Shown piece after piece: positions 20,038 to 63,538 of a stretch of 63,538 nt of DNA; positions within the stretch are counted from its first letter, which is position 1, and every line of letters starts with the position of its first letter. The notes beneath the pieces were generated by a model. That model did not search any database. It had not been told where the DNA came from and saw only the letters and a list, made by a program, of their open reading frames with translations. The stretch comes from Phocaeicola plebeius (lineage in GTDB: Bacteria; Bacteroidota; Bacteroidia; Bacteroidales; Bacteroidaceae): contig NZ_QSQT01000019.1 of assembly GCF_003437535.1 (NCBI RefSeq), positions 1-63,538 of the forward strand, written 5' to 3'. A program made the position numbers and the translations under genes.

Positions 20038-20408
20038 CTACCCATACAGCCAAAAGAGAAGATAAGCTCTTGCCTCTTTTCTCTTTTCGCTGCGATACTC
20101 TTTTACTTCATAGCCACCTTTTACACACATCCGTACCGAGCAAACTCCCACATGCTCGCATATCAACTTTCGGTCTGCCCGATGGGAATTGTGTCGCAAA
20201 GGTATTTGCCATGTCTTTATTGTATGCAAGGTTGTAACCTGAAGGTTCACTACAAAATCTCCACGCTCCGCTTCGCAGAGGTAGTATTTTGTAGTGAAAC
20301 CCTGCATACATAGCCATGCCACCTGTTGAAGCGACATAATTTCAATCAAGCCCGAAAGTAAGTGAAATGCTACAGGAGGGAAAGTAACAAACTTAAAACT
20401 TGGTATTT
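20038..20408 (+). promoter_or_regulatory. Leader 1 of the repeated leader family
   Basis: This is the first and most divergent copy. CTTTT-rich boxes are at 20070-20130 and the GCAAAGGTA motif at 20196-20204. A large hairpin pairs GGTTCACTACAAAAT (20244-20258) with ATTTTGTAGTGAAACC (20286-20301), with outer TATGCA/TGCATA pairing. A purine tail GGAGGGAAAG ends just before the start codon at 20409. Confidence 0.65.
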
Positions 20409-20711
20409 ATGGCAAATTATGCAACCAACATTTTCCACGCAAGAACGGAAAATAAAACAGACCTCGACAAAATAGAGGCTTTCTTGGATGACACTTTCAG
20501 CGAATTTACCAATCGATATGGTGATAGTGTAGATGCAGAATTTTCCTCTCGTTGGGTGTATCCAGAAGAAGAAATCAAAAAATTGGTAGAATCGTTGGAG
20601 GACAAAGATAAAGTCTATATCAAGATTCTAACCTATGAATTTGAAGACGAGTACGTGAGCTTTAGAATATTCTCTCAGGGAGAATGGAAGGTCAAATTAG
20701 TAACTGAATGA
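20409..20711 (+). CDS. Small acidic cargo protein, unknown
   Basis: The 100-residue protein starts MANYATNIFHARTENKTDLD; an upstream TTG at 20400 is possible but poorer. It is acidic, with strand-helix texture and the motif FSSRWVYPEEEIKKLVESL. The opening resembles the N-terminus of Api92/DUF1281-like proteins (M-x-N-x-x-T-N), which suggests a small relative. It is the first gene behind leader 1. Confidence 0.6.
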   Translation: MANYATNIFHARTENKTDLDKIEAFLDDTFSEFTNRYGDSVDAEFSSRWVYPEEEIKKLVESLEDKDKVYIKILTYEFEDEYVSFRIFSQGEWKVKLVTE

Positions 20712-20734
20712 GTAGAAGAAGATAAAGTAAAATT

Positions 20735-20866
20735 ATGGTCTATCCTACACTTTGCTTATTCTATAAGAGACACACGGATGGAACGATTGTCGGTGATTTC
20801 GACAACAAAATCACTGTTCGTTTCATCTGTGGCAAAGAGAGAGTATTAAATACTGTGATGAAGTAA
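20735..20866 (+). CDS. Very small protein (43 aa)
   Basis: The ATG at 20735 opens a 43-codon frame reading MVYPTLCLFYKRHTDGTIVG and onward to NTVMK. It lies 23 bp after the previous gene and 27 bp before the next, in the same direction, so it fits as a cotranscribed small gene. It is too short for family assignment. Confidence 0.45.
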   Translation: MVYPTLCLFYKRHTDGTIVGDFDNKITVRFICGKERVLNTVMK

Positions 20867-20893
20867 TTTTTACAATTTTACAACATAGAAACC

Positions 20894-21223
20894 ATGACAC
20901 AGATAGCAATGAAATTCGTCCAATGGGATGTGCCCGAATTGGAAAAACTGAAAGATAGCAAGGTTTACAAATTACGGGAACGTCTTGATAATGGCGACAA
21001 GTTGAGTCGGGAAGAAAAGAACTGGCTCACCCGCAATGTGAAAGAGTGCTGCCATTTCAAAAGAGGTATCGCTTTAATGGGCTACCGTTTTGACTTCTCC
21101 GATGTTCTCAAACGGTATTTCGTGAAACAACATGGACATATTGCCGAATATTATGCCATTGACAAAACCGCACTACGTTCTGTCCTATATGGTCGAATTG
21201 AAGATATAATCGAAGTACAATAA
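20894..21223 (+). CDS. Small cargo protein, unknown
   Basis: The 109-residue protein has a helical, charged N-terminus (WDVPELEKLKDSKVYKLRER) and text RNVKECCHFKRGIALMGYRF, then YFVKQHGHIAEYYAIDKTAL. The same style occurs in small mobile-element proteins of Bacteroidales. It is cotranscribed with its neighbours behind leader 1. No function can be assigned. Confidence 0.6.
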   Translation: MTQIAMKFVQWDVPELEKLKDSKVYKLRERLDNGDKLSREEKNWLTRNVKECCHFKRGIALMGYRFDFSDVLKRYFVKQHGHIAEYYAIDKTALRSVLYGRIEDIIEVQ

Positions 21224-21237
21224 AAATCAAAAGAAGC

Positions 21238-21498
21238 ATGAAAGTAACAATTGAACACAGCTTTTGCCCCTATTGTGACGAGGTAACTGAACTTTATTTC
21301 CGAATCATTAACACGATTCTTTTTTCTGGCAATGAGGCGGAATTGCGTGAAAGCATGAGACAGTTGGAGAAAAAAACTCCACTTGATGAATATTTCACAT
21401 ACGGTTACGGTGCACGACACCTTTGGGTTTGCCAGCGACGTCCCAGCGACAAAACCAAAATATTCGAGCATCGTATTATGATGGTTGAATTTCAATGA
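21238..21498 (+). CDS. Small protein with CPYC motif
   Basis: The 86-residue protein has CPYC near residue 10 and a further Cys in HLWVCQRRPSDK near residue 64, which may form a zinc or redox site. It begins 14 bp after the previous gene and is the last of the leader 1 operon. Function unknown. Confidence 0.58.
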   Translation: MKVTIEHSFCPYCDEVTELYFRIINTILFSGNEAELRESMRQLEKKTPLDEYFTYGYGARHLWVCQRRPSDKTKIFEHRIMMVEFQ

Positions 21499-21499
21499 C

Positions 21500-22195
21500 A
21501 CCTTGGACAAATATCATCGACTGGCTGGAATGGAATCACCCATTTCAGCCTTACTTCCATTTTCCTTTTATAACTTTTTCTTTTGGCTGCGCCACTCCCT
21601 TTTGTAGAAACCAGCCATTCGCACAAAGCGAATTGGAAACCACTTTGTGAAAAGTCTGGTTCTTCCTGCCGTTTTTCCTTCCAGTTCCATTTTTTTTCGA
21701 TGCGGATATCACTATCCTCCAAGGATGGGCTACCTACGCTTCTGTCCACTCTTGGCTGACACATTCCTTATGCAGTGGCCTTTTTTCTGATTGGATGGTA
21801 TTCTGTTTGTTACAGTCTCAATTCAAGCCAGGCATGTCTCGCTTTGGCTTTGCTATTCTTCACTGACTTTCGGACGGATGTCTCGCCTTTGTGCCGACAT
21901 TTGGATTTGCTCTTTTTCCTTATCATTACCGGTTTACTTGTTTCCCATTTTCCATAATCGCTTTTTATCGAAGCAATCATCATTTTTCCTCTGCAAAGAT
22001 AGTATGCCGACGGGAACGACATGGTTGTCTTGACCAATGGCGTAGCCGCTTCAATCTTCCTTTATCGAGCCTTCGATTTTACCTGTGGCTAAAAATAAAG
22101 CGTATTGACGCGCTATCCTTGGTGCATCCCTTAAACGACATCTACTTTTTAGGCAGTGTAAAAATTGATTTAATAACTTCTAAAAGCAATTCAAC
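21500..22195 (+). promoter_or_regulatory. Leader 2 of the repeated leader family
   Basis: About 700 bp without a plus-strand gene. CCTTTTATAAC and CCCTTTTGTAG boxes lie at about 21563-21606. The TGCAAAGATA motif is at 21992-22001. It is followed by GGCGTAGCCGCTTCAATCTT, a TAGCC/GGCTA stem and an AGCG/CGCT stem. The canonical terminal hairpin is not obvious, so this copy is divergent. It precedes ssb. Confidence 0.6.
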
Positions 22196-22576
22196 ATGAA
22201 AAAGATTGAAAACAATTTCACAGTAACCGGATTCTTAGGTAAAGACGCTGAAATCCGAGAGTTCACCAACAGCAGTGTCGCACGTTTCCCATTGGCCGTA
22301 AGCCGTCAGGAAAGGAATGCCGAGGAAACCAACCGCATTTCAGCCTTTATGAATATTGAGGCTTGGCGTAAAAACGAGAATACTGGGTCATTCGACCAAC
22401 TGACCAAAGGTACGATGCTCACCATTGAAGGCTACTTTAAGCCTGAAGAGTGGACCGACAAGGTCGGTGTGAAGCACAATCGTGTTGTTATGGTGGCTGT
22501 CAAGTTTTATCCTCCTATCGAAAAGGAGGATGTTCCTGAAAAGCCGGTAAAGCCCGTGAAAAAAGGCAAAAAATAA
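22196..22576 (+). CDS. ssb: Single-stranded DNA-binding protein
   Basis: The 126-residue protein is a compact OB fold: NNFTVTGFLGKDAEIREFTN, then RFPLAVSRQERN, then FMNIEAWRKNE and a strand KGTMLTIEGYFKPEEW. The C-terminus is a Lys/Pro tail (KPVKPVKKGKK) and lacks the acidic DDDIPF-type tip of housekeeping SSB, so recruitment of host partners may differ. It likely coats the transferred strand or protects it after entry. It stands alone behind leader 2 and ends at a hairpin. Confidence 0.85.
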   Translation: MKKIENNFTVTGFLGKDAEIREFTNSSVARFPLAVSRQERNAEETNRISAFMNIEAWRKNENTGSFDQLTKGTMLTIEGYFKPEEWTDKVGVKHNRVVMVAVKFYPPIEKEDVPEKPVKPVKKGKK

Positions 22577-22639: not shown

Positions 22640-23063
22640 ATACGCATCATACTTTTATAAGTGACTGTTGCGATGCCAAGCTCCAAATGAAATCTTCACC
22701 CGGTAATACTGTTATACTTAGCTCCACTTGATGAACAGGCAGATTACGATTTTCAATAGAAAAAAGAAGACTCTCTCAATTCCATACCTCTGAGCAGCTT
22801 TCCAGTCCCTCTTATAACCATATTTCTTCCCAAAAGTGAGGTTACGTCCGCCGTCCATTAATTTTACAGTGCGAAGTTAAGTCGGACGTGAACCTGCAAG
22901 GCGCGTTTCATTTGCAGTCAATGCCGTTCAAATGAAATCCTTCGGATTCCGCTTCCTCCTTGCATTGTTCCCTTCTTCCGCCTTGTGGTTTGCACGTAAA
23001 ATCAAATCCCACCGGACGAGGTAAAAGCCTCTGAAGGGAAGGGAAAATAAAAAATTAGAATGT
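22640..23063 (+). promoter_or_regulatory. Leader 3 of the repeated leader family
   Basis: Boxes CTTTTATAAG (22654) and CCCTCTTATAAC (22812) lie in the first half. A weaker GCGAAGTTAA motif is at 22871. A perfect stem pairs TTTCATTTG (22906-22914) with CAAATGAAA (22929-22937). GCACGTAAAATCAAATCCC is at about 22992-23010. The terminal hairpin GAGGT/GCCTC lies at 23018-23031, followed by GGGAAGGGAAAATAA. Confidence 0.75.
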
Positions 23064-23591
23064 ATGAAACAAATAATTTGGTCAAGTGATGCTCTATTGG
23101 ATGAAACAGCAAGAGAGTATTATCAAAATTTCAAGCGAGAAGAACTGGACGATGATGCCTACAAGGTCAGCGATGAAGAGTGGTCGGACGAAGTGTATAA
23201 TGAATTGGGGGATGAGCGGCAGAACCTAAACAAGGATGTCAATGGAGTCATTATTGCATTTGGAGATTTAGGATTGTGGAACGGACGCAAACAAGGCTAT
23301 CAAATTTTGGGTGACAACATTGCCGGGATATTACAATCTACCCAGTATGATGCAGAGTGGTACGGTGACGGCTACGATATACGAGGCCGTATGTCGCACC
23401 ATGATGGCACGAATTATGTTTTGTACCGTGTCGCTGAAAATCGTGACGACGCAGAACAGATTGCCGCAAAAATCTACAACTATGAAATTGACGAGAATGG
23501 TTTTCGCCAAGTTACACGTTCCCTCCACCCCTATGTGGCCGCAGTGTATGGCTGGAAAACTCTACAGGACAACCTCGTTCAGGTAAAATAG
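23064..23591 (+). CDS. Cargo protein, unknown, phage/plasmid-like
   Basis: The 175-residue protein starts MKQIIWSSDALLDETAREYY. It has an acidic first third and a conserved-looking core, NGVIIAFGDLGLWNGRKQGY, then WYGDGYDIRGRMSHHDGTNY. It resembles small proteins seen beside polyvalent and anti-restriction genes on mobile elements, but I cannot name a family. It stands alone between leader 3 and a strong terminator. Confidence 0.62.
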   Translation: MKQIIWSSDALLDETAREYYQNFKREELDDDAYKVSDEEWSDEVYNELGDERQNLNKDVNGVIIAFGDLGLWNGRKQGYQILGDNIAGILQSTQYDAEWYGDGYDIRGRMSHHDGTNYVLYRVAENRDDAEQIAAKIYNYEIDENGFRQVTRSLHPYVAAVYGWKTLQDNLVQVK

Positions 23592-24056: not shown

Positions 24057-24371
24057 ATGACATTCAGAGAATTTATGTTAGAGAACGGTTATGAATTGCA
24101 AACAACCTTTTGGAATGATTTTTCCATTGCTGACCGATTTGGTCTTTCGGCGATACAGGACACTTTCAACCGTGCTTTTAAGGAGTGGAAAGAGAACTAC
24201 AAGTATCTCACGGAACTGGTTTTAGTGCTTAACCATAAGATATGGCAGTATTATGAAACAAGGCCGGAAATTGCGACATTGTATAATACCCTTTGGGCAC
24301 AAGCCAGTCAATATGCAATGGAGTATCTGGAAGATGACGAGCTAAGCTATTATTATGATGTAACGGATTAA
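24057..24371 (+). CDS. Small acidic helical cargo protein
   Basis: The 104-residue, largely helical, acidic protein has aromatic-rich text such as TTFWNDFSIADRFGLSAIQD and the tail LEDDELSYYYDVTD. An acidic, aromatic, helical profile is common among small anti-defence and DNA-mimic-like proteins, but nothing specific is recognised. A weak AGCCG/CGGCT hairpin follows at 24404-24421. Confidence 0.6.
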   Translation: MTFREFMLENGYELQTTFWNDFSIADRFGLSAIQDTFNRAFKEWKENYKYLTELVLVLNHKIWQYYETRPEIATLYNTLWAQASQYAMEYLEDDELSYYYDVTD

Positions 24372-24399: not shown

Positions 24400-24789
24400 A
24401 GAAAGCCGGCTTTTGTCGGCTGCTCTTTGTGGTCATTCCCTTTTTTATCACTCCGTTTTACCCTTGTATAAAACGAAATTATTTCGTTTCAGGCTGCTAC
24501 CAGTCAGGACTTGTTTTTTCCTGTGCAAAGGTATTGCCACGGAAAAACATTCAAGTACCGCTACGCTATTTGAACACAATTTTTCAGTAGCTTTCCCGAT
24601 TTTCAATCGCTCAAATGTCGTATACGCTCCATACCGCAACTGTAAAAATTCTGTCCAAATTCCTTGCCTGCTTTTCCTTAAAGGCAATCTTGAATGCACG
24701 TAAAAATCAAATCCCGACTGGAGAAGCCTAAAAGCTTCCGAAAAAAGGGAAAAAAAGAACATGATGTTTAATAGCTAAATTTTAAAAGT
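24400..24789 (+). promoter_or_regulatory. Leader 5 of the repeated leader family
   Basis: CCCTTTTTTATCAC is at about 24438. TGTGCAAAGGTA is at 24522-24533. TCAAGTACCGCTACGCTATT is at 24551-24570. A long stem pairs 24568-24584 with 24644-24660 (15 of 17 positions). GCACGTAAAAATCAAATCCC lies at about 24696-24715. The terminal hairpin GAAGC (24723-24727) / GCTTC (24734-24738) is followed by AAAAAAGGGAAAAA. A five-codon mini-ORF (ATG at 24761) precedes the gene. Confidence 0.8.
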
Positions 24790-25290
24790 ATGGAAATTCA
24801 ATTTGTGATTGTTCGTTCAGAAAATGCAGAGTATTTGTGTCACAATGTAAATGGAACGTATGTGGATGTCAGTGACCCATCAACAGAATTTGTTTCTGGA
24901 GAGGATGATTTTCGCTTGGTAGATCCGGACAGCTCCCTAACGCGGAAAGAATACGAGTTTCGTGGAGAACGCTTTTATCTCATGCCTCAATTTTATGGCA
25001 ATGGCTGGTTAGCACTTACTTTGCAAAGTGTGGAAGATGAAACAGAGTATATCGTGCTATCCGTCAATTTGGAGAGCATGGATGCACTCGATTTGCCAGA
25101 CCGTACATTTATTGATGTGAATCATTATCCGGATGCAATGGAGTTTCTGGAGACAAATAATTTAGCGACCTATTCAGGTTACAAGCGTAGAAGCGGATTT
25201 GTGGAATATCCAATGGCGGTATTGAATCTTCCTTTGCTTTATCAGCACGCCCCGCAGATTTTCCAAGAGGCGAATATCGAATGTTTTTAA
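24790..25290 (+). CDS. DUF4313-like protein
   Basis: The 166-residue protein matches the DUF4313 pattern in its second half: SVNLESMDALDLPDRTFID, then VNHYPDAMEFLETNNLATYS and RRSGFVEYPMAVL. The N-terminal part is a strand-rich region with FYLMPQFYGNGWLALTLQS. Proteins of this type are common cargo on Bacteroidales and other conjugative elements; function unknown. It stands alone between leader 5 and a terminator. Confidence 0.68.
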   Translation: MEIQFVIVRSENAEYLCHNVNGTYVDVSDPSTEFVSGEDDFRLVDPDSSLTRKEYEFRGERFYLMPQFYGNGWLALTLQSVEDETEYIVLSVNLESMDALDLPDRTFIDVNHYPDAMEFLETNNLATYSGYKRRSGFVEYPMAVLNLPLLYQHAPQIFQEANIECF

Positions 25291-25379: not shown

Positions 25380-25781
25380 GACAGGTGGCATCCCCCCTTT
25401 TTTACAGATTGCTCCGTGCCCACTTTTTTAATTTCCTTGTTTCCCTTTTATAGCAGCGTAACTGCCTGCTTCTCTTTTACAGCCCTTATGTAATGAATGT
25501 TGATGTTTCCTGTCGTTATCCAGACTTTCGCCCGGTCTTGTTTTCGTGTGCAAAATTACGGCGAACGAACGCTATCCAAGTATCGCTACGCTATCCGAAA
25601 TGAAATTTGACGTAATCTTCCTAAATCATAGATTTCGGTATTCATAAAATTTCATTTCCGATTCCTTGCACTGCGTTCCTGCTTCGTCGTTTGGGACGCA
25701 CATGAAAAACAACCCTTCCGGCAAAGTCGAAAGACTTGAAAAAAGGGAAAATAAAAAACTTAATTAAAAACGAAAACGAGT
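25380..25781 (+). promoter_or_regulatory. Leader 6 of the repeated leader family
   Basis: Three boxes (CCTTTTTTACAG, CCCTTTTATAGC, CTCTTTTACAGC) lie at 25397-25490. GTGCAAAATTA is at 25548-25558. CCAAGTATCGCTACGCTATC is at 25576-25595. A long stem pairs 25593-25608 with 25647-25662 (15 of 16). GCACATGAAAAACAACCC follows. The terminal hairpin AAGTC (25724-25728) / GACTT (25733-25737) is followed by AAAAAGGGAAAATAA. Confidence 0.82.
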
Positions 25782-26036
25782 ATGACAATAGAAGAAGTAT
25801 TACAGCACGATTTAAAATTCAGATATATGTTATTGGGTCGTTTGCAAGCCGACTGTGAATATTATCTTGGCTTTGGAAACAAAAGTTCTCGTCGTTTGTG
25901 GGCTGGTTCTGAAAAGACACAAATTGAATACATGACGAAAATTCACGACAGCTTCCGAGAAAACGAAAAACCCGAATGGCTGACAATGGAGCAAATCAAA
26001 GAATACAGCAATGCTATGGGAGTAACACAAGAATAA
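25782..26036 (+). CDS. LPD11-like small protein
   Basis: The 84-residue protein fits the large polyvalent protein-associated domain 11 pattern: LQADCEYYLGFGNKSSRRLW, then KTQIEYMTKIHDSF and KPEWLTMEQIKEYSNAMG. In larger proteins this domain is fused to many effector or anti-defence modules of phages and conjugative elements; here it stands alone. Function unproven. It is followed by a hairpin at 26045-26082. Confidence 0.75.
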   Translation: MTIEEVLQHDLKFRYMLLGRLQADCEYYLGFGNKSSRRLWAGSEKTQIEYMTKIHDSFRENEKPEWLTMEQIKEYSNAMGVTQE

Positions 26037-26094: not shown

Positions 26095-26507
26095 AATAAG
26101 GGTCGGAGTTTGAGAACATACCCTCTTATAATTGAGAGGGTAATAATAATCCCTCTTTTATAATTATATCATTCTATTCCTTTTTTATATTTCTGCAAAA
26201 GGAATAGCATTCTTCTTTTATATTAATTATTTTTCATTTTATCTCCCATCTATTCTTCATCCTATCACCGGTTTGGTTTTATCAGATGCAAAGGTCGGCT
26301 ATCGCGCTTGATCCTGCTACTTGAAGTGTATTTCTTACAAAATTCTTCCTTCCTGCGCAAGAGTAATTTGGCAAGAAAAGTTGCCGTATGAAGCTGTATC
26401 GACATCCGTTTACCGCATCCATAAATCCCAAAACGGTTCAATCAGTAAAGAACCGACAATATGGGAAATAAAAGTTAATACTAACCAATTCTTTAAACAT
26501 TAAAATC
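26095..26507 (+). promoter_or_regulatory. Leader 7 of the repeated leader family
   Basis: Repeated CCCTCTTATAATT and TCCTTTTTTATAT boxes lie at 26130-26190. ATGCAAAGGTC is at 26286-26296. A long stem pairs TTTCTTACAAAATT (26331-26344) with AATTTGGCAAGAAA (26365-26378), 12 of 14. The terminal hairpin CGGTTC (26434-26439) / GAACCG (26450-26455) is followed by ATGGGAAATAAAAG. Confidence 0.75.
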
Positions 26508-27188
26508 ATGCCTAATTATGTAACAAACCGTTTAGAAATAAACGCAGACAGAGAAACAGTACAAAATGTGATGGATTTCTTAAAAGGAAAAACAGATGAA
26601 GACAGTACGCCTTGCTATATTGACTTCAACAACATTATCCCTATGCCAAAGGACTTACTGATAGAAGCGTCCACTTCTGGGGAATTTGGTATGCAGTATA
26701 TCATAGCACAGCAACGTAAACCGTTCAATTCACAGGACGACCTGAAAGTCATTCAATGGATGGAAATTCAGGAGGAAAAAGTCAGGGAAGAAGCATTACA
26801 ACTTGGAATGACATATCTGAAAAACTGGGGAAAATACGGTTATCCTACTTGGTATGAATGGTCTATCGCTAACTGGGGTACAAAATGGAATGCCTTTAAT
26901 CAGAATTTTGAAGAACCGAACGTGCTTTGGTTTGATACGGCTTGGGAAGGTGTGCCGCTGCTTATCCAAACACTCTCCGAAATATTTCCGGACGTCGAGT
27001 TTCAATATGCCTATGCGGATGAAGACCTTGGTTCCAACGTGGGCAAAGGGACTATCCGAAATGGAGAAACCGACATGACATTCCCCGATAGCGGAAGTAA
27101 CGATGCCTTTGAAATTGTCTTTTTCGTAAAACCGGGATTAGAGGAATACTTGGAACTGACAAACGAGGGGTATAGGTGGAAAGCCTAA
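26508..27188 (+). CDS. Api92-like (DUF1281) protein
   Basis: The 226-residue protein has both halves of the Api92-like fold: MPNYVTNRLEINADRETVQN and DFNNIIPMPKDLL at the start, WSIANWGTKWNAFN in the middle, and the ferredoxin-like repeat FDTAWEGVPLLIQTLSEIFP, then DVEFQYAYADED. Such proteins are widespread cargo of plasmids, phages and integrative elements; the molecular role is not settled. A truncated relative lies at 36373-36729. Confidence 0.8.
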   Translation: MPNYVTNRLEINADRETVQNVMDFLKGKTDEDSTPCYIDFNNIIPMPKDLLIEASTSGEFGMQYIIAQQRKPFNSQDDLKVIQWMEIQEEKVREEALQLGMTYLKNWGKYGYPTWYEWSIANWGTKWNAFNQNFEEPNVLWFDTAWEGVPLLIQTLSEIFPDVEFQYAYADEDLGSNVGKGTIRNGETDMTFPDSGSNDAFEIVFFVKPGLEEYLELTNEGYRWKA

Positions 27189-27556: not shown

Positions 27557-28201
27557 TCAGGAGTCACCTTCATTTGTTCCGTCCTCTTTCGGGTTCTGTT
27601 TGACACGCGGACCGCTGGTTTGGCCACGATCAAGTTTTACGCCATATTTATTGAGTATGCGCCAAATAGAACTTTTGCTGCTAAAACCGCTTGCAGCCCA
27701 AATGTCATCGAAAGAATGCCCGTTGATATACATATCCACGATTGTCTTATCTCGTTCAGCTTTAGGTAATACCTTCGGCACAGCCGGGGCTTTGATATTC
27801 TGGCGTAACTTCTCGACATGAGCGGAATATTTTCGTAGCGCGGCAATTTCTTCCGGAAATGCCCCTATTATCCACAACACATCGGCTGCTGTCGTACCGG
27901 GGAATAATTCACCGCGAGTATCAACTCTGTCATGAATGGATATGACACGTACAATTTTGATACGGCATAGTTCGATGAACGCGGCCAGTTCTCTTAAACC
28001 GCGTGCAGCATTGCTGAATTTGGATATGACTATTTCATCGCCCCTTTGAAGATTCGCCATAAGCTGTTTCCACATAGGTCTCAATGTTTCATGTTCAACT
28101 GTTTCCTCTACGATTTGTACACAACCATATCGCTGCATCCATTCTCTCTCAGCATCAAAACTGTCATTATTTTCCTTGAATATATAGCCAACTTTTGCCA
28201 T
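27557..28201 (-). CDS. Serine recombinase-like protein lacking the catalytic serine motif
   Basis: From the Met that begins AKVGYIFKENND the protein has 214 residues. The fold follows the resolvase N-terminal domain: MQRYGCVQIVEE, LMANLQRGDEIVISKFSNAA, RGLRELAAFIELC and VRVISIHDRVDT. The usual Y-A-R-V-S start is Y-I-F-K-E, so the nucleophilic serine is absent. A helix-turn-helix follows (MYINGHSFDDIWAASGFSSK, SSIWRILNKYGVK). It is probably a DNA-binding regulator derived from a resolvase. Its promoter at 28231-28238 sits inside a palindrome, which fits autoregulation. Confidence 0.72.
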   Translation of the reverse strand: MAKVGYIFKENNDSFDAEREWMQRYGCVQIVEETVEHETLRPMWKQLMANLQRGDEIVISKFSNAARGLRELAAFIELCRIKIVRVISIHDRVDTRGELFPGTTAADVLWIIGAFPEEIAALRKYSAHVEKLRQNIKAPAVPKVLPKAERDKTIVDMYINGHSFDDIWAASGFSSKSSIWRILNKYGVKLDRGQTSGPRVKQNPKEDGTNEGDS

Positions 28202-28225
28202 TTTAATATACACTGTTTTGATAAC

Positions 28226-31794: not shown

Positions 31795-32000
31795 AAACAG
31801 AATGTATAACCGCAACAATCCACTTTTGTATCCAGTGAAGCCCCCCTGCCAGTTATAGAAGGCATCCGGGCTTGCCCGCCTGCCACGAACAAAGGGAAGG
31901 GGGAGCCTAATACCCCACCTGCCTGACGTTGGTGGGAAGGGTGTCCGAACAAGCAGCAAGCTGGGACACGGTAGATTGTCCGAAACAATATGAAAAACGT
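31795..32000 (+). other. Candidate oriT region before the MobV gene
   Basis: This 206-bp gene-free stretch holds inverted repeats usual for relaxase nick regions: CCCACC with GGTGGG at about 31914-31938, and GTGTCC with GGACAC at about 31940-31970 around a 17-base loop. It is much richer in G and C than its surroundings. MobV relaxases typically act just upstream of their own gene. The nick site itself cannot be placed. Confidence 0.55.
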
Positions 32001-33458
32001 ATGGCAAATCAAAAACAGGTACTCGACGTGCAGGTGTCGAAAGGGATTACCACCGCCCAAAGTAATGAACATCTGCGTGACCGTAGTGAAAAGGCAGAGA
32101 AGTACGCTATGAGTAAGGGAAATTATGATCCTACGCGTAAACGGCTGAACTTCGAGATTGCGCCCGGAGGTAAAATACATCCCATCGACACAAGCCGTAG
32201 CATTCCCAAACGGATGGCGGACATATTAAGTCACCGTGGAATCAAAGATCCTAATGAGGGGCTGCTCGAACCAAAATACCGCACGGTGGTAAATATCATC
32301 TTCGGCGGTTCACGGCAGCGAATGCAGGAACTTGCTTTCGGTACGCAACAGGTGGACTTTGAAAAAGGTGCGGACAATACCCGCATCGAACGGAAGCGTG
32401 ACATTGAACGCTGGGCCAAGGATGTTTATTCATTCGTTTGTGGCAGATATGGTGAGCAGAACATCGCTGCATTCATTGTACATCTGGATGAATTGAACCC
32501 GCATATCCACTGTACGCTTCTGCCAATCAAGGATAGTCGCTTTGCGTACAAGGAAATCTTCGCCGGTAAGGATAAGTTTGAATATAGTGCAAGAATGAAA
32601 CAACTTCATACGGACTTTTTCGCAGAAGTCAATACAAAGTGGGGAATGTCAAGAGGAACAAGCATATCCGAAACGGGTGCACGGCACAGAACGACTGAGG
32701 AATACCGCCGAATGTTGTCTGAAGAGTGTACAACAATCGAGGATAATATCAAACTCCATCAACAGGTATTGGGTGAACTTCAATCAGACATCCGGTTGGC
32801 AGAACGCAGAGTCAAAGGGCTTACGACAATGGTTAGCAATCTTGAAAAGCAGAAAACTGAAAAAGAAACCTTGTTATCGGCAGCCGAGTACAATTTAAAA
32901 GAAAACAAAGGCAATGCGGCAGAATTGGCAATCCAAATACAAATGTTGGAAAAAGAGCTGCAAGGAATCATCAGGCAACTGGCAGACAAGCAGGAAAAGT
33001 TGCAGACGGCTGACCGGCAACTCATCGAACTGAAAAAGGATATGGGAGCCATTGAAGAACGTACCGAAGAACTCAAAGAGGAGGCCTATCAATATTCCCG
33101 TGATGTACACTCCAAAGTGGATAGCTTGTTTAAAGACGTCCTACTGGAGAGTGTAATCAGCGAGTATCGTAACGCATCGGCACAAATGAATGTTTCAGAA
33201 CGGCAGCTCTTTGACGGTTCACTGGTACAGTCTATCGCCGAGCGGGGTACGGAAATCATGCACTGTGCGACAATGCTATTTCTCGGAATGGTAGATGATG
33301 CCACTACATTTGCCGAATCACATGGTGGTGGAGGCGGAGGGAGTGACCTCAAATGGGGACGCGACGAGGACGAGGACAATCGAGCATGGGCACTTCGCTG
33401 TATGAGGATGGCGAGCCGCATGATGCGCTCGACTATCGGCAAGAAATCTAAACGGTAA
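32001..33458 (+). CDS. MobV-family relaxase (Mob/Pre)
   Basis: The protein is 485 residues from the Met that begins ANQKQVLDVQVSKG; the longer frame from 31929 runs into the oriT-like repeats. MobV motifs are visible: an N-terminal segment ending TAQSNEHLRDR and the metal site AAFIVHLDELNPHIHCTLLP (H-x-D-E-x-x-P-H-x-H) near residue 170. A coiled coil covers about 250-390, and a Gly-rich GGGGGGS linker comes near the end. It would nick one strand at oriT and lead transfer. Confidence 0.9.
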   Translation: MANQKQVLDVQVSKGITTAQSNEHLRDRSEKAEKYAMSKGNYDPTRKRLNFEIAPGGKIHPIDTSRSIPKRMADILSHRGIKDPNEGLLEPKYRTVVNIIFGGSRQRMQELAFGTQQVDFEKGADNTRIERKRDIERWAKDVYSFVCGRYGEQNIAAFIVHLDELNPHIHCTLLPIKDSRFAYKEIFAGKDKFEYSARMKQLHTDFFAEVNTKWGMSRGTSISETGARHRTTEEYRRMLSEECTTIEDNIKLHQQVLGELQSDIRLAERRVKGLTTMVSNLEKQKTEKETLLSAAEYNLKENKGNAAELAIQIQMLEKELQGIIRQLADKQEKLQTADRQLIELKKDMGAIEERTEELKEEAYQYSRDVHSKVDSLFKDVLLESVISEYRNASAQMNVSERQLFDGSLVQSIAERGTEIMHCATMLFLGMVDDATTFAESHGGGGGGSDLKWGRDEDEDNRAWALRCMRMASRMMRSTIGKKSKR

Positions 33459-35329: not shown

Positions 35330-35726
35330 CTGTTATATATTTCGCCTATAATATGATACCCCTTTTTATGTTTTTCCATTCTGAGTATTCCCTTATCGCA
35401 CCATCGGCAAATCTGGCCGAAGAGATTTTATATGCAAAGGTACAGTGTCCGGACGATTGTCAAGCACCGCTATGCTAACGGTTCCTGGATATTTTACGGC
35501 AGCCTTCCTCAAATCAAAGATTGACTTTCAGTCCCCTTCTCATTGCAAGGTATAAAAGGACAAGCCTGCTTCTGCTCTTACATTCGAAGGTTGGGTATTC
35601 CGTTCCATTCCATTTACTGTTTACTTGTCTTATCGCCCTTATTCCACTGTTAATCCTGCATAAAAATCAATCCCCGGCAAGAAGCCGAAAGAGCTTCAAG
35701 CAAAGGGAAATAATAAATCAAAGAAT
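35330..35726 (+). promoter_or_regulatory. Leader 8 of the repeated leader family
   Basis: CCCCTTTTTATG is at about 35359. TATGCAAAGGTA is at 35431-35442. TCAAGCACCGCTATGCTAAC is at 35460-35479. CTTCCTCAAATCAAAGATTG follows, then an insertion of about 60 bp absent from leader 10. GCATAAAAATCAATCCCC comes next. The hairpin GAAGC (35681-35685) / GCTTC (35693-35697) is followed by AAGGGAAATAATAAA. Confidence 0.8.
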
Positions 35727-36234: not shown

Positions 36235-36372
36235 GCATTTCCTTGTATTGTATATTCAGCCCGATTACTCTTATAGCCATGCTCCACCGAACTCCCACAA
36301 CCGGTCCTATTCCTTTTTTACTCGTCGTACTCCGTTTCTAAACAGTATAACACATTTATTGGCCTGACATTC

Positions 36373-36729: not shown

Positions 36730-37168
36730 GACTAATCCGATGCAGAAAACGAAATGACGGTATGCTGACAGCGTGCAGCGAACTATCATTATCCGATAAG
36801 CTTCTCTGATTTCATGCAGATTGGAGACTTTGTCGCCTTCAGTCCTTTTATACAGTCTCAGAGTGCTTCTCCAGTCTTTTATAGATATTCTTTATATCGC
36901 ATATCGGCAGTTCTTATCTGAGAGATTTTGTATGCAAAGATACAGCTTTAGAATGGTCGTCAAGTAACGCTGCGCTAACAGTTCCCGGATACTTGTGGCA
37001 GCCTTCCGCATATCGAAGATTTGGGTATTCCACTTCATTCCATTCACTGTTTACTTGCCTTATCCATCCTTTCCTTGCTGTCAATTTCGCATAAAAATCA
37101 TTCCTGACAAGAAGCCGAAAGAGCTTCAAGTAAAGGGAATAAAGTTTAATCATTTAAATTTCAAAATT
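36730..37168 (+). promoter_or_regulatory. Leader 10 of the repeated leader family
   Basis: CCTTTTATACAG and CTTTTATAGA boxes lie at 36842-36886. TATGCAAAGATA is at 36931-36942. TCAAGTAACGCTGCGCTAAC is at 36960-36979. CTTCCGCATATCGAAGATTT follows, then GCATAAAAATCATTCC. The hairpin GAAGC (37111-37115) / GCTTC (37123-37127) is followed by TAAAGGGAATAAA. It is closest to leader 8 but lacks its 60-bp insertion. Confidence 0.8.
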
Positions 37169-37706: not shown

Positions 37707-38085
37707 TCTTCCTATATAACAGTCCGGTTACTTTTATAGACCATGTTCTGCCGAACCTCTGTTACCAATTCACAGCCTCTTTTACCGATTCTATATTACC
37801 TGTTCTAATTGTATTACATTCTCACAGTCCCGACATGCACCATTGTTTGTTTCGTGCGCAAAGGTACGGTGGCAAACGATGTTCAAGTACCGCTGTTGCT
37901 ACCTGAAATGAAATTTGACGTAACCTTCCGCAATCACAGATTCCGGTATTCATAAAATTTCATTCCGGTTACTTGCTCATAGTTCTTGCATCCACCGTTG
38001 AAAATGCACATGAAACAACCTCTTGGGTAAAGTCGGAAGGCTTCAAGAAGAGGGAAATAAAAAACAACTTAAAAAAATAAATGCA
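37707..38085 (+). promoter_or_regulatory. Leader 11 of the repeated leader family
   Basis: CTTTTATAGAC and CCTCTTTTACCG boxes lie at 37730-37786. GTGCGCAAAGGTA is at 37854-37866. TTCAAGTACCGCTGTTGCTA is at 37882-37901. A long stem pairs 37901-37916 with 37955-37969, with one bulge. GCACATGAAACAACC follows. The hairpin AAGTC (38030-38034) / GGCTT (38039-38043) is followed by AGAGGGAAATAAAAAAC. Confidence 0.82.
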
Positions 38086-38280: not shown

Positions 38281-38284
38281 TAGT

Positions 38285-57189: not shown

Positions 57190-57944
57190 CTCAACTTTTA
57201 TAGAAGATGTTCGCCCTGACCGGTACACGGCAAATGGCATACAAGTCTGCTATATGCTGTGTACCAGTCTTTGGGATAAAGCAAGGACGATGGCACATTT
57301 GCCACAAGTGTCAATCAAGCCAATCTGTTGTCCTTGCAGCGACCTCTGCTATCTGTTCTTTTGTAACCGGCAATGCCGTCTGTTTGTTTTTATAGCTTCG
57401 CCCCACACCATCAGCGGAGCGTCACAGGACTTGTCCGCAAGAGACATTCACTCACCTTATGGCAGCAGAGCTGCTATGGGGTGAGTGAAAGACTCTTTAC
57501 GGAAGCCAAACATGAAAAGACCGTACACCTCGGTCACAAACTGCCAAGGCTTACGCTTCGCCAGATTTGAGACTAAGTTGTATGGTCACTTCATCGGGAA
57601 GTTTGGACCGGCAAGCCACAGACGTTCCACTGCCCACCCATTCCTTTTATAAATCTTGCACCTATTCTACATGTCTATATGACAACCGCCTGTAGTAAGA
57701 AAGCATATTCTGTTTGTTGGTTAGCTCTGCTGTAGTCATATTTTCCGCAAAGTAAGCCGCCTTTTACCAAACATCAAATCGCCACTATCGCTGGAACGAA
57801 AAATCTTCCTCTGACACGTCAGAGCGTATTTCTTGTCGCCGTTTTGTCTTATCGGTATTCTTGGGCGGCAGTTGATGGCAGAAAATATCCCTCAGCAGGC
57901 TGAACAGCCTTCAAAAAGAGGGAAAAAGAAAAATTATCAGAGTT
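57190..57944 (+). promoter_or_regulatory. Leader 12 of the repeated leader family (long form)
   Basis: A 755-bp gene-free leader. A CCTTTTATAA box is at about 57651 and TTTTTATAGC at about 57387. A 43-nt hairpin at 57447-57489 pairs TTCACTCACC with GGTGAGTGAA, with an inner GCAGC/GCTGC stem. CCGCAAAGTAA is at 57746-57756. AATCTTCCTCTGACACGTCAG (a perfect CTGAC/GTCAG stem) comes next, then GGCAGAAAATATCCC. The hairpin AGGC (57897-57900) / GCCT (57907-57910) is followed by AAAGAGGGAAAAAG. Confidence 0.75.
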
Positions 57945-58511
57945 ATGGCAAAGACGATAGACATAGAACTTCAAAAACAGTTGGACAAGCCACAGGCATG
58001 GTTCTGCAAGTATTTTCCTGCACGCATACGCAATGTGAGTGAGCGTGAGATAGCAGACCGCAAGTTAGTCTTTGATTTCAAGGATGGACGGGCATACGAA
58101 GAGGTTGCTCAACGCACGGCAGCCAACATGACCGAACGTTATGGAACATCATGTACTAACATTGTATTTTCTCCCGTACCGGCATCCACCGATAAGAAGA
58201 ACGAGATACGTTACAAAGCATTCTGCCAAAGAGTATGCGAACTGACGGGAGCTATCAATGGTTATGACCATGTATCAGTGAGTGGTGAGAGGCTAACCAT
58301 TCACGAAAACCGTAAGGCAGAGAAAGAAATCCGTAAGGTAAACGTCATTGAGTTTGATTCGGCTTTTTTCAACGGCAGGTCTGTGGTAGTCTTTGATGAT
58401 GTGATAACCAAAGGGCTGAGTTATGCTACCTATGCCAATCAGCTTGAAAGCCTTGGTGCTAATGTACTCGGAAGTATATTCCTCGCAAGAACCCATTACA
58501 AAGTGAAATAA
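57945..58511 (+). CDS. Phosphoribosyltransferase-like protein
   Basis: The 188-residue protein has the PRTase PRPP loop SVVVFDDVITKGLSYATYAN near residue 150 and the earlier strand CTNIVFSPVPAST. It lacks a membrane segment. Its stop is separated by 1 bp from the next gene (SLOG), so the two are certainly cotranscribed and probably coupled. The ribose-phosphate substrate may be a nucleobase or a modified nucleotide; unknown. Confidence 0.8.
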   Translation: MAKTIDIELQKQLDKPQAWFCKYFPARIRNVSEREIADRKLVFDFKDGRAYEEVAQRTAANMTERYGTSCTNIVFSPVPASTDKKNEIRYKAFCQRVCELTGAINGYDHVSVSGERLTIHENRKAEKEIRKVNVIEFDSAFFNGRSVVVFDDVITKGLSYATYANQLESLGANVLGSIFLARTHYKVK

Positions 58512-58512
58512 T

Positions 58513-59016
58513 ATGACCCAGACAAAGTATGATAAGGCAGTGTCCGTTTGCTTCAGTGGACACCGCAATATTCCATTCCTATACAGGAAGCAACTGAAGC
58601 TGCAATTAAAGACAGCGATAACCAAGGCATACGCTGGAGGTTATCGTCATTTTTACTGTGGTTGTGCCATGGGGTTTGATATGCTGGCGGCAGAAGTTGC
58701 TCTTGCGTTGCAGTCCGAATTGTCAGGTCTGCAAGTTATTGCCGTAGTACCGTATCGCGGACAATCCGAGCGGTGGAACGATGCGATGAAAGCCCGGTAT
58801 GATACTATTCTCTGTAACTCGGATGATGTTATCATCCTGAGCGAACACTACTACCATGGCTGTTTGCTTCGACGCAACGACTATATGGTTTTTCACAGTT
58901 CGTCTCTTATTGCCTGGTATGACGGCAACCCCAAGGGTGGTACGTTTTATACTTATCGTAAGGCTACAGCGAATGGACTAAAAGTTCTAAATCTCTATGG
59001 CAGCTCAATCGTATAA
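58513..59016 (+). CDS. SLOG (DUF1273/YpsA-like) protein
   Basis: The 167-residue protein has the YpsA-type SLOG Rossmann fold: SVCFSGHRNIPF near residue 10, HFYCGCAMGFDMLAAEVALA near 50-70, then VVPYRGQSERWN and the second nucleotide contact LLRRNDYMVFHSSSLIAWYD. SLOG domains bind nucleotides or nucleotide-derived signals and recur in conflict systems. Pairing with a PRTase gene 1 bp upstream suggests that one makes or consumes a nucleotide the other senses. Confidence 0.85.
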   Translation: MTQTKYDKAVSVCFSGHRNIPFLYRKQLKLQLKTAITKAYAGGYRHFYCGCAMGFDMLAAEVALALQSELSGLQVIAVVPYRGQSERWNDAMKARYDTILCNSDDVIILSEHYYHGCLLRRNDYMVFHSSSLIAWYDGNPKGGTFYTYRKATANGLKVLNLYGSSIV

Positions 59017-60224: not shown

Positions 60225-60680
60225 CTGCCTTATCAAAAAGACTTACTCATTCCCCATGATTTAATACAGTCGTCATTCTGCAATTATCAAGAGATGGGCC
60301 AATCCATCCGATTCCACCTCCCTTTATAGTTCACCTTCCTCCGATATAATACGGGCAATCCATTCCGATTGTCCGTTACCCTGTTTTACAGTTTTATTCA
60401 TCCCTTTCTATTTGATTGTCATTTATTATCGTTTTGCTGCTGCCGTGCGACCTCTCGTGGACTTATTTTCCCGCAAAGGTAATAGGCTGCTCCAATCTTG
60501 CCAATGCCGGCGTTCCGCTGCGAGTGAGCCGTAAAAATCTTCCTCTCCGTCTGTCGAGCGTATTTTTCCGCATCAGCCTTGTCAGATTGTTTCCGCCACC
60601 TTTTGGAGGCAGAAAAATAAATCCCAAAGGTCGCAAACAGGTTGAACAAAGGGAAATAGTAACAATAAAAAAATAACATT
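60225..60680 (+). promoter_or_regulatory. Leader 13 of the repeated leader family
   Basis: Boxes CCCTTTATAG (60322) and CTGTTTTACAG (60381) come first. CCGCAAAGGTA is at 60471-60481. AAAAATCTTCCTCTCCG and GTATTTTTCCGCATC follow. GGCAGAAAAATAAATCCC is at 60608-60625. An AAGGGAAATAGTAAC tail ends before the ATG at 60681. The block 60381-60623 is identical to 63296-63538. The terminal hairpin is weak in this copy. Confidence 0.82.
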
Positions 60681-61627: not shown

Positions 61628-61981
61628 CTAATCAAATAATCGCTGACTTATCATCCAGTCATTAAGCACGTCCGGATCTACACGATTTGTAAGATTCACA
61701 TTTTTACTCAAACAACCGATTTTCTCACCTCTTAAATAAATAACTGGTGGGGTTAATGTATTCGGATTGTATGGACTTAACGATGAACTGGGACTTCCAT
61801 ATATGGAATACCGATTCTTGAAAGATATACTTGAAAAGTGACTACCGTATATATTCTCGTTGTTGGATATGGAATCAGGAGTAGATGTGTTCAACGACAA
61901 TCTGCCTAAATACAAACCGTCATTTGCCAATAGAAACGATTCTTTCCTTGAAATTCTGGTATCTAAACCTATTCTATCCAT
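61628..61981 (-). CDS. Ser/Asn/Tyr-rich short-repeat protein
   Basis: The 117-residue protein has a repeat-like core (GLYLGRLSLNTSTPDSISNN, then ENIYGSHFSSISFKNRYSIY and GSPSSSLSPYNPNTLTPPVI) with the motif Y-G-S-x-x-S-S-x-S-x-x-N-x-Y. Such small proteins with repeated YGS..SS.S..N.Y texts are known as conserved hypotheticals. It lies 19 bp downstream of the toxin candidate, same direction, so it may be part of the same operon. Confidence 0.6.
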   Translation of the reverse strand: MDRIGLDTRISRKESFLLANDGLYLGRLSLNTSTPDSISNNENIYGSHFSSISFKNRYSIYGSPSSSLSPYNPNTLTPPVIYLRGEKIGCLSKNVNLTNRVDPDVLNDWMISQRLFD

Positions 61982-62000
61982 TCCCTATGATTTAACGCCA

Positions 62001-62486
62001 TTATTTAATAATGCCATAACGTCTTTTAGTTGCATTATCGAACACCTCTGTCGCTCTTAGAAACTGCATTACCCGTTCCCTGTCTTCGGAAATCAGGCAA
62101 CCTTTCAGTTTACCGTTCTTTTCCGTGATTTTTAATTTTGAAAGTTCGAATATATCGGAACAATCCAGCCAACTGTCATAGTCCAGAATATCACGATAGT
62201 TCCGAACCATCAAAGGATATTGGCAGTCCAGTAGCTCTTCCGACCTCTTGGAAGAATCTATTTCCGAATTTATCAGTAAGGCACCGATAGCGACACCTTC
62301 CGGAGTAAAGCCGATAATAACAATATATTTATTGCGGTCTTTATATCCGTCTTTTAGTATCAGTCCGTCCTCTTCGTCCAAGGGGACATAAATAATATCA
62401 CCAATTTTGACTGATGACATATCTACTTGCTCAGCTTTGGCCATTATAGCTTTCAGCTTTTCCAATGCACCGGTTTTGTCGTCCAT
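62001..62486 (-). CDS. Toxin candidate of a Panacea toxin-antitoxin system
   Basis: The 161-residue protein has an SH3-like barrel of PemK/MazF type: SSVKIGDIIYVPLDEEDGLI, then DRNKYIVIIGFTPEGVAIGA and LLINSEIDSSKR. A helical C-terminus follows. It starts 6 bp after the DUF4065 antitoxin gene, the usual operon order for such pairs. The target (RNA, membrane or another) cannot be read from the sequence. Confidence 0.65.
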   Translation of the reverse strand: MDDKTGALEKLKAIMAKAEQVDMSSVKIGDIIYVPLDEEDGLILKDGYKDRNKYIVIIGFTPEGVAIGALLINSEIDSSKRSEELLDCQYPLMVRNYRDILDYDSWLDCSDIFELSKLKITEKNGKLKGCLISEDRERVMQFLRATEVFDNATKRRYGIIK

Positions 62487-62491
62487 TTGAT

Positions 62492-63049
62492 TTAAGATAA
62501 AGCGTTCTTGACAATCTGCTTTTCTCGGATATAATCTACCATGTCCTTGGTAGCTTTTCCTGCCCGGGCTATATCTATAATGGTAATGAAGTTTTTTTGA
62601 GGATCATCCTGAATGCGTGTCATCGCTTCTTCCCATGCCGAGTCATGCGACAAATCGGACAAGTCATAAGGGTCTGTATCCTTATATTTAGCGATAGCAG
62701 CGTCAAGACAACGTTTGTTGGCACCTGATATATAGTCCATATCGGGTACGGCAGAAGTATATACCTTCTTGTCACGAACCTCTATGTCTGAAAGGAACTC
62801 GTCAAAATTCCCATCCAAGGGTTTGCCTTCTGCAATTTGCAGTGCCTTGTAGGTATAGGCTGGCACCGGGCCATGCTTCAATGCTCTGAAAGAGTCTTCG
62901 ACAATCACTTTGCCATATTTGACAAGATGGTCCTGTTGGGCAAAATAAAGTATTTTAAATAACTTTATATAGTCCACTCCTTGAGTGAAACTCTGCATGA
63001 TGTAGAGTACCACTGCTCTTATTTTAGCAATCTGTATAGCTGTTTTCAT
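62492..63049 (-). CDS. Panacea/DUF4065 (SocA-like) antitoxin
   Basis: The protein is 185 residues from the Met that begins KTAIQIAKIRAVVLYIMQSF; the longer frame from 63082 crosses the promoter. The Panacea fold is evident: GVDYIKLFKILYFAQQDHLV, then VEDSFRALKHGPVPAYTYKA. Panacea antitoxins neutralise very different toxins, and are often swapped among partners. The promoter is at 63072-63079. Confidence 0.8.
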   Translation of the reverse strand: MKTAIQIAKIRAVVLYIMQSFTQGVDYIKLFKILYFAQQDHLVKYGKVIVEDSFRALKHGPVPAYTYKALQIAEGKPLDGNFDEFLSDIEVRDKKVYTSAVPDMDYISGANKRCLDAAIAKYKDTDPYDLSDLSHDSAWEEAMTRIQDDPQKNFITIIDIARAGKATKDMVDYIREKQIVKNALS

Positions 63050-63071
63050 TTCAAAAAAATCTATGCGATTA

Positions 63072-63079
63072 CAAAGATA
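63072..63079 (-). promoter_or_regulatory. -7 box of the toxin-antitoxin operon
   Basis: TATCTTTG on the minus strand, 23 bp upstream of the antitoxin start. Confidence 0.6.
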
Positions 63080-63148
63080 CAACTAATTTGCTGAATAATA
63101 CGCTCATGATACAAAAAAAATAGTCCGTTGCATTTTTTTACGACATTT

Positions 63149-63538
63149 AATATAGTCGTCATTCTGAGAGTAATAGTCTGCAATTATCAAGAGATGGGCC
63201 AATCCACCCGATTCCACCTCCCTTTATAGTTCACCTTCCTCCGATTATAGTACGGGCAATCCGTTCCGATTGTCCATTACCCTGTTTTAACACCCCTGTT
63301 TTACAGTTTTATTCATCCCTTTCTATTTGATTGTCATTTATTATCGTTTTGCTGCTGCCGTGCGACCTCTCGTGGACTTATTTTCCCGCAAAGGTAATAG
63401 GCTGCTCCAATCTTGCCAATGCCGGCGTTCCGCTGCGAGTGAGCCGTAAAAATCTTCCTCTCCGTCTGTCGAGCGTATTTTTCCGCATCAGCCTTGTCAG
63501 ATTGTTTCCGCCACCTTTTGGAGGCAGAAAAATAAATC
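63149..63538 (+). repeat. Leader 14, near-exact copy of leader 13, cut by the window edge
   Basis: The stretch repeats 60260-60623 with two small insertions in its first half. The last 243 bp (63296-63538) are identical to 60381-60623. It carries the same boxes, CCGCAAAGGTA motif (63386-63396) and GGCAGAAAAATAAATC. A cargo gene is expected right after the window. Confidence 0.9.

What the first reader, a model, noticed from the sequence alone, without database searches (positions are those of the whole stretch)
20038..63538. A family of ~14 structured non-coding leaders in front of cargo genes
Seen: nearly every plus-strand cargo gene or short operon starts behind a 250-700 bp gene-free leader (20038, 21500, 22640, 23700, 24400, 25380, 26095, 35330, remnant 36235, 36730, 37707, 57190, 60225, 63149). 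They share parts in fixed order: 2-3 CTTTTATAG-like boxes, TGCAAAGGTA, CAAGTACCGCTACGCTA, an imperfect long stem, CTTCC...GTATT, GCACGTAAAAATCAAATCCC, a small hairpin and AAAGGGAAATAA, then ATG within 15-50 bp. The downstream proteins are unrelated, so selection acts on the leader itself. Inference: one regulator or one transfer-linked signal controls a dispersed accessory regulon. I do not know this element as a named RNA or DNA family.
Basis: partly seen in the sequence, partly recalled or inferred. Interest (0 to 1): 0.9.

Follow-up and report, generated by a model that had tools for sequence, protein, structure and literature searches.

The report
Hairpin promoters for single-stranded transferred DNA
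A mobile DNA element of gut bacteria carries more than a dozen hairpins that look like promoters working only while the element's DNA is still a single strand, as it is on entering a new cell, which would let it switch on its first genes at once.

Summary
The leaders are real: 13 hairpin copies plus one remnant, all on the plus strand, each before a start codon or the window end. They are probably not RNA leaders.

On the minus strand, TGCAAAGGTA reads TACCTTTGCA, the Bacteroides -7 box (TAnnTTTG); conserved CAAG is a -33-like CTTG 17-20 nt away. On double-stranded DNA this promoter points away from the gene. In a hairpin of the single minus strand it points into the gene. The -7 box is conserved on one arm only and faces an internal loop; the -33 box is paired and conserved on both arms. 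The stem covaries over 58 sequences; G.T and A.C mismatches are equally frequent, which argues against RNA; rightward double-strand promoters are depleted upstream.

The oriT-like hairpin beside MobV suggests minus is the transferred strand, hence the template. This resembles Frpo, the single-stranded-DNA promoter of plasmid F, without sequence similarity and with another sigma consensus. A second sequence family of the same design occurs on Bacteroides plasmids.

Unproven: no transcript was measured; pMV158 precedent points to the opposite strand; most relatives found lie where they would enter last; the model recovers 7 of 13 window copies. I rate it a new variant of a known kind.

The parts
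20190..20345 (-). c1 hairpin (functional strand minus); gene downstream 20409-20711 (+, 100 aa, no Pfam match)
   Evidence: fold; z -7.3; -7 box at 20197
21985..22170 (-). c2 hairpin before SSB; no clear -33 box
   Evidence: z -3.4; not found by R1
22196..22576 (+). single-stranded DNA-binding protein gene (SSB)
   Evidence: Pfam SSB E 5.7e-15
22862..23005 (-). c3 hairpin; gene 23064-23591 (+)
   Evidence: R1 30.2 bits
23838..23995 (-). c4 hairpin; gene 24057-24371 (+); -7 box has one mismatch
   Evidence: R1 17.1 bits, E 0.27 (not significant on its own); z -3.1
24515..24705 (-). c5 hairpin; gene 24790-25290 (+, DUF4313)
   Evidence: in R1 training set
25540..25713 (-). c6 hairpin; gene 25782-26036 (+, LPD11)
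   Evidence: in R1 training set
26285..26430 (-). c7 hairpin, weak and divergent; gene 26508-27188 (+, Api92/DUF1281_C-like)
   Evidence: z -1.0; not found by R1
31795..32000 (-). putative oriT: covarying hairpin directly 5' of GGTATTAGGCT on the minus strand, upstream of MobV
   Evidence: inference
32001..33458 (+). MobV relaxase
   Evidence: NCBIfam MobV E 9.9e-51; Pfam Mob_Pre
35424..35667 (-). c8 hairpin; gene 35727-36197 (+)
   Evidence: in R1 training set
36235..36372 (+). remnant: boxes only, hairpin and gene start lost; intact relative at L012 20513-20692
36924..37098 (-). c9 hairpin; gene 37169-37654 (+)
   Evidence: in R1 training set
37848..38015 (-). c10 hairpin; genes 38086-38951 (+)
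   Evidence: in R1 training set
57740..57890 (-). c11 hairpin; genes 57945-59016 (+, relative of a plasmid phosphoribosyltransferase, and YpsA/SLOG)
   Evidence: not found by R1
60467..60622 (-). c12 hairpin; ATG at 60681 (+)
   Evidence: arms pair but not in the lowest-energy fold; 245-nt exact repeat with c13
63382..63538 (-). c13 hairpin, cut by the window end; by order, the matching leader of NZ_OY725888.1 precedes an N-6 DNA methylase
25435..25480 (+). example of the CTTTTATA-type boxes upstream of a hairpin (role unknown)

Best explanation
Each leader is a single-stranded-DNA promoter of the Frpo kind, adapted to the Bacteroidota primary sigma factor. When the conjugative element enters a recipient as single-stranded minus-strand DNA, the leader folds back on itself. 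Its left arm supplies the non-template strand, with CTTG (-33) and TAnnTTTG (-7); its right arm supplies the template, which runs on into the gene. The -33 region is double-stranded; the -7 region is already open, because the opposite arm does not pair with it. Host RNA polymerase would bind, start near the foot of the stem (around GTAAAAATC) and copy the gene before a second strand exists. Once the DNA is double-stranded the hairpin is gone, the same boxes point leftward, and the gene is off. Shown here: pairing, covariation, box placement, strand bias, gene adjacency. Inferred: minus = transferred strand, polymerase binding, start site, early expression.
For: -7 and -33 consensus of sigma-ABfr: TAnnTTTG and TTTG (PMC7366714 passages). 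In 53 of 57 distinct relatives both boxes occur with a 17-20 nt spacer (26/23/3/1). -7 conserved on the left arm only; opposite arm variable (28 rows). Mean unpaired probability 0.33-0.83 at positions 1-6 of the -7 box against 0.10-0.12 in CAAG (53 sequences). CAAG/CTTG paired in 57-58 of 58 rows. Covariation 0.306 vs 0.124; 453 vs 180 double-change cells; 0 of 500 shuffles. Mismatches: plus G.T 143, A.C 144. Rightward -7 boxes depleted upstream, 2 vs 10.8. 84 of 85 matches on the MobV strand, the other an overlapping antisense match. oriT-like hairpin 5' of a conserved GGTATTAGGCT on the minus strand. Second family with the same design on plasmids, where of the -7 box only the two nn positions vary (six sequences). 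Downstream genes recall F's leading region: SSB, ParB-like, methylase; F has SSB, ParB-like and methylase there.
Against: No transcript or binding data. pMV158 and IMESag-rpsI, the studied MOBV relaxases, nick the relaxase coding strand, which here would be plus, the wrong strand; my polarity rests on the order of hairpin and conserved flank only. If minus is right, 7 of 13 window copies lie in the early part and six would enter late; of the 84 relatives 66 (43 of 57 distinct) lie on the late side of MobV. Seven of 13 copies do not fold better than shuffles singly. c12 and c13 do not form the basal stem in their lowest-energy fold. R1 misses 6 of 13 window copies, the second family and F's Frpo. 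c2 and c7 lack a clear -33 (sequence read by eye). The G.T/A.C balance gives no positive preference for the minus strand.
Confidence: 0.75

Rival explanations
1. Structured RNA leader: a rightward promoter upstream transcribes the hairpin, which regulates the gene as a riboswitch-like or protein-bound RNA.
For: The hairpin covaries, and a short hairpin with an outer CCC/GGG pair sits before the start codon.
Against: G.T (G.U) mismatches are no more frequent than A.C; rightward TAnnTTTG boxes are depleted upstream; promoter boxes of the opposite strand are among the most conserved parts; no Rfam match at gathering score.
Confidence: 0.1
2. Leftward double-strand promoter for an antisense or small RNA; the hairpin is incidental.
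For: The boxes form a full leftward promoter on double-stranded DNA.
Against: Does not explain covarying stems through 53 pairs, conservation of the -33 on both arms, the unpaired -7, or an ORF just to the right in 57 of 57.
Confidence: 0.05
3. Single-strand initiation site only: RNA polymerase makes primers for second-strand synthesis at many places on the transferred strand; genes downstream are incidental.
For: Frpo is also said to trigger RNA primer synthesis (PMC9024699 passage); copies are dispersed along the element, including parts that would enter late.
Against: Strict placement 0-80 nt before an ORF and a conserved region up to the start codon point to mRNA. It may well be an added role.
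Confidence: 0.07
4. Invertible promoter: the segment between the short basal repeats flips and turns the gene on.
For: Bacteroides uses invertible promoters (recalled; titles and abstract starts), and the element encodes a serine recombinase (27557-28213).
Against: On the MobV strand of the window and 80 loci, as-found orientation 99 matches, 54 with the basal partner; inverted orientation 3 matches, 0 with the partner (not deduplicated). Read from the other strand the same hairpins give 75 and 47 for the mirror pattern and 3 and 0 for the as-found one, as expected. Pairing runs far beyond the basal repeats.
Confidence: 0.02

Closest known systems
Frpo/ssi single-stranded-DNA promoters of plasmid F and relatives
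   Same: Non-coding hairpin of the transferred strand rebuilding promoter boxes, upstream of SSB and other establishment genes, genes read from the transferred strand (passages; F region).
   Different: No sequence similarity (only 15-22 nt chance matches); -33/-7 boxes of the Bacteroidota sigma instead of -35/-10; 13 diverged copies in the window instead of two alike ones (88.8%, 92% in the paper); copies on both sides of the relaxase.
RNA-polymerase-primed single-strand origins (ssoA) of rolling-circle plasmids
   Same: Folded single strand recognised by host RNA polymerase (recalled).
   Different: They prime DNA synthesis and need not precede genes (recalled); these precede ORFs in 57 of 57 cases.
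Bacteroidales invertible promoters
   Same: Promoter boxes near inverted repeats in the same bacteria (recalled).
   Different: No inverted-state copy with a basal partner found; promoter lies in the arm, not between the repeats.

Membership tests
Frpo-type single-stranded-DNA promoter | Single strand folds into a stem-loop that rebuilds the -35/-10 (here -33/-7) boxes facing the gene | tested here: met
   prediction, and c12/c13 fold otherwise at lowest energy
Frpo-type single-stranded-DNA promoter | Structure kept by selection (compensatory changes) | tested here: met
Frpo-type single-stranded-DNA promoter | Template is the transferred strand | tested here: inconclusive
   oriT layout says minus; MOBV precedents say coding strand
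Frpo-type single-stranded-DNA promoter | Located in the leading region | tested here: inconclusive
   7 of 13 window copies if minus is transferred; 66 of 84 relatives lie on the other side of MobV
Frpo-type single-stranded-DNA promoter | Sequence homology to known Frpo | tested here: not met
   only 15-22 nt chance matches to F; R1 no match. So not filed as a homologous member; it works like one
Frpo-type single-stranded-DNA promoter | Transcription from single-stranded DNA by host RNA polymerase | not testable with these tools
   needs biochemistry
Known RNA family (Rfam) | Match above gathering score | tested here: not met
Invertible promoter | Both orientations occur | tested here: not met

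The most novel reading that the evidence does not exclude
Bacteroidota conjugative elements evolved, independently of Frpo and for a different sigma consensus, a dispersed set of a dozen or more hairpin promoters that are on only while the element is single-stranded and reverse direction when it becomes double-stranded, giving a whole-element regulon for establishment in the new host that also supplies primers for second-strand synthesis.
Probability: 0.45. Interest if true: 0.9.

Novelty: new variant of a known kind. Interest (0 to 1): 0.8.

Why it matters
The single-strand promoters in the papers I saw are enterobacterial Frpo sequences or candidates sought with known Frpo sequences and the -35/-10 consensus, an approach unlikely to find these. 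If the reading is right, Bacteroidales, which carry many conjugative elements in the gut, have their own version. The hairpins then mark establishment genes: many unknown proteins behind them become candidates for anti-defence or establishment roles, and the hairpin's direction predicts which strand is transferred.

Tried and rejected
Rfam search: nothing at gathering score. Order-level searches for downstream proteins gave little: 1 of 149 and 2 of 99 genomes. MAFFT over all 12 copies misaligns the arms, so the model was built from six well-aligned ones, five from the window and one from NZ_OY725888.1. Viral contigs: 3 relatives of MobV, not used. A -35/-10 scan of F's Frpo with a strict threshold found no pair; I rely on the papers for Frpo geometry. 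Small 5'-UTR hairpin: the consensus fold of 45 UTRs gives only three outer pairs, though inner stems appear in the nine window UTRs folded singly, weakly in c12. RNA leader, leftward promoter and inverton were considered and ranked low. The oriT polarity of pMMCAT could not be read; for it and for G184 only the 'relaxase usually last' rule (passage) was applied, by inference, and pMMCAT's second relaxase would give the opposite answer. Functions of most downstream proteins: no Pfam, NCBIfam or PADLOC match (not every protein went to every library).

Rows dropped: two antisense palindrome matches in A4 (left in the counts, removed) and one in A6 (left, removed); identical rows merged. For the UTR alignment 45 of the 52 distinct UTRs were given.
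Full report
WHAT WAS CHECKED. I read the 14 leaders. Thirteen hold hairpin arms over about 140-250 nt directly before a plus-strand start codon (or, for c13, the window end); the one at 36235 is a remnant whose intact relative lies in NZ_OY725888.1. The basal stem closes in the lowest-energy fold of 11 of 13. The copies are strongly diverged (42% mean column identity). Only three pairs among the 12 complete ones match each other by blastn at E 1e-5: c8/c9, c6/c10 and c4/c12.

THE KEY READING. TGCAAAGGTA on the plus strand is TACCTTTGCA on the minus strand. TAnnTTTG at -7 with TTTG near -33 is the sigma-ABfr consensus (PMC7366714, passages). CAAG, 17-20 nt to the right, is CTTG on the minus strand. 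So the typical leader carries a promoter that on double-stranded DNA points left, away from its gene (c3, c4, c7 and c11 have one mismatch in the -7 box; c2 and c7 no clear -33; read by eye). The left arm (-7 to -33) pairs imperfectly with the right arm that ends at GCACGTAAAAATC. In a hairpin of the single minus strand the left arm is the non-template strand, the right arm is the template, and the promoter points into the gene.

COMPARATIVE EVIDENCE. Six copies gave model R1. R1 finds 9 of 123 genomes of the family and 2 of 295 of the class, G001 included in both. A search for relatives of the MobV relaxase kept the best 80 of 94 loci, nearly all labelled Bacteroidota. In these R1 gives 85 matches at E 0.01 or better; 84 are on the relaxase strand and the other overlaps one of them on the opposite strand. 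They fall in 49 of the 80 loci and are 57 distinct sequences. Covariation score 0.306 against 0.124 in shuffles, and 453 cells with changes on both sides against 180; 0 of 500 shuffles reach either (58 distinct rows including one antisense row). Slid structures fall to 0.05-0.09. One of the five measures, further pair types, is reached by 23 of 500 shuffles here and by 319 of 500 in the smaller set. The tool warns that an alignment fitted to a structure leans towards it, and that related sequences can beat shuffles; the first alignment, made by MAFFT without the model, also passes (6 rows; 21 pairs with double change against 10.3), although its structure was derived from those sequences.

WHY DNA AND WHY A PROMOTER. 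(1) The -7 box is conserved on the left arm and not on the facing arm, and is the open part of the stem: mean unpaired probability 0.33-0.83 at its positions 1-6, against 0.10-0.12 in CAAG (53 sequences). (2) CAAG/CTTG is paired in 57-58 of 58 rows at each of its four positions. This is what a promoter needs: the -33 read as duplex, the -7 read on the non-template strand. (3) The spacer is 17, 18, 19 or 20 nt in 26, 23, 3 and 1 of the 53 sequences with both boxes; the other four of 57 depart at the TA. (4) Mismatch types in the stems: plus G.T 143, plus A.C 144; 79 and 77 in the smaller set. A selected RNA would be expected to favour G.U; the model's own scoring also favours it. (5) The 350 nt upstream of 57 hairpins hold 2 rightward TAnnTTTG against 10.8 in mononucleotide shuffles, so a conventional promoter for the gene seems to be lacking.

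A SECOND FAMILY. The 98-kb plasmid pMMCAT (NZ_CP072215.1), which carries relaxase and tra genes, has four copies of an unrelated hairpin; the next annotated genes are DUF2958, LPD28, phosphoribosyltransferase and PcfK, all on one strand, and two similar leaders stand before SSB genes (the lowest-energy fold of the 65445 copy differs). Blastn finds this family in 33 plasmid records, 109 places. Across two pMMCAT copies and four plasmid relatives (three at 76-79% identity, one at 95%), ACGGCAAAnnTAT is invariant except for the two nn positions, which are TT or GG, while the facing arm is highly variable. R1 does not find this family, so two sequence families share one design. Six of eight SSB upstream regions tested (window, G194, G196, G189, two of pMMCAT) share TTTT..GCAAAnnTA and a closing ..TAAAA; two plasmid ones do not.

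WHICH STRAND IS TRANSFERRED. Just upstream of MobV, 73 of 78 loci with enough sequence show AATACC followed by a short hairpin, 56 of them scoring four or more (pairs minus three per mismatch); most read AGCCTAATACCC. On the minus strand the hairpin stands 5' of GGTATTAGGCT. In relaxases of this fold the hairpin lies 5' of the nick on the transferred strand (recalled; pMV158's IR3 fits). That makes minus the transferred strand, running left, so c7 to c1 with SSB would enter first. Against this, pMV158 and IMESag-rpsI nick the relaxase coding strand. I did not resolve the conflict. On the minus reading 7 of 13 window copies are early; 66 of the 84 relatives (43 of 57 distinct) lie right of MobV and would enter late. 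Four of R1's six training copies are right-hand ones and the flanks held are at most 10 kb, which may explain part of this.

DOWNSTREAM GENES. SSB, DUF4313, LPD11, Api92-like, a relative of a plasmid phosphoribosyltransferase with YpsA/SLOG, an N-6 DNA methylase behind the leader that by order matches c13, and in G184 a ParB-like protein with a PF03432 relaxase on the same strand. F's leading region holds SSB, ParB-like, methylase and antirestriction genes; the region before its SSB gene and an 88.8% repeat of it I take for Frpo2 and Frpo1.

THE RNA PART. If transcription starts at the foot of the stem, the 5' UTR is about 60-85 nt, starts near GTAAAAATC and ends in AAAGGGAAATAA. In 45 aligned UTRs only an outer CCC/GGG pairing is recovered by consensus folding. 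I take it as a minor element of unknown role.

NOVELTY. Six papers were seen as passages (PMC11541004, PMC9849209, PMC7366714, PMC5863519, PMC5090054, PMC9024699; the first also as abstract and outline). Library searches combining Frpo, single-strand promoter or leading region with Bacteroides gave 0, 0, 4 and 2 papers; judged by title and abstract start these six do not treat the subject, and in the one opened Frpo and Bacteroidetes occur in unrelated passages. The library is open-access only, so this is not proof of absence. Samuel et al. used known Frpo sequences and the -35/-10 consensus; no word beginning with 'bacteroid' occurs in the held text.

Noticed in passing
window 20100-63300, e.g. 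25445, 36876, 37731, 57195: CTTTTATA boxes upstream of the hairpins: 37 in 57 upstream regions against 1.0 expected, and 0 of the reverse TATAAAAG; 31 of the 37 lie 46-133 nt before the hairpin. Role unknown.
   Followed up: partly
regions upstream of relatives in L078-L157: Leftward-type boxes CAAAnnTA are enriched upstream of the hairpins (26 against 6.9); possibly further hairpins or leftward promoters.
   Followed up: no
window 31795-32000: Conserved oriT-like region of a MobV family in Bacteroidales: AGCCTAATACC plus hairpin, then GTGTCC..GGACAC around a conserved ACAAGCAGCAAGCTGG.
   Followed up: partly
window 60379-60623 and 63294-63538: Two leaders share 245 identical bases, a recent duplication.
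   Followed up: no
window 36235-36729: Deletion that removed the hairpin and the start of the next gene, relative to NZ_OY725888.1.
   Followed up: partly
window 43145-45394: ArdC-like protein with a MutS domain I at its C-terminal end.
   Followed up: no
window 19600: The region shared at 99.6% with G001 starts here, so it is likely near the left end of the element.
   Followed up: no
window 57945-58511: Protein with a weak PADLOC match to ShosT (E 7.6e-12) and none in Pfam, next to a YpsA/SLOG gene; a related pair stands behind the other hairpin family on plasmids.
   Followed up: partly
window 46-9871: Cluster of ankyrin-repeat and DUF1266 proteins left of the element.
   Followed up: no
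apical parts of c4, c11, c12 and L013 20310-20440: Motif ATCTTCC-hairpin-GTATTT recurs in hairpins of different families (read by eye); possibly a protein site.
   Followed up: no
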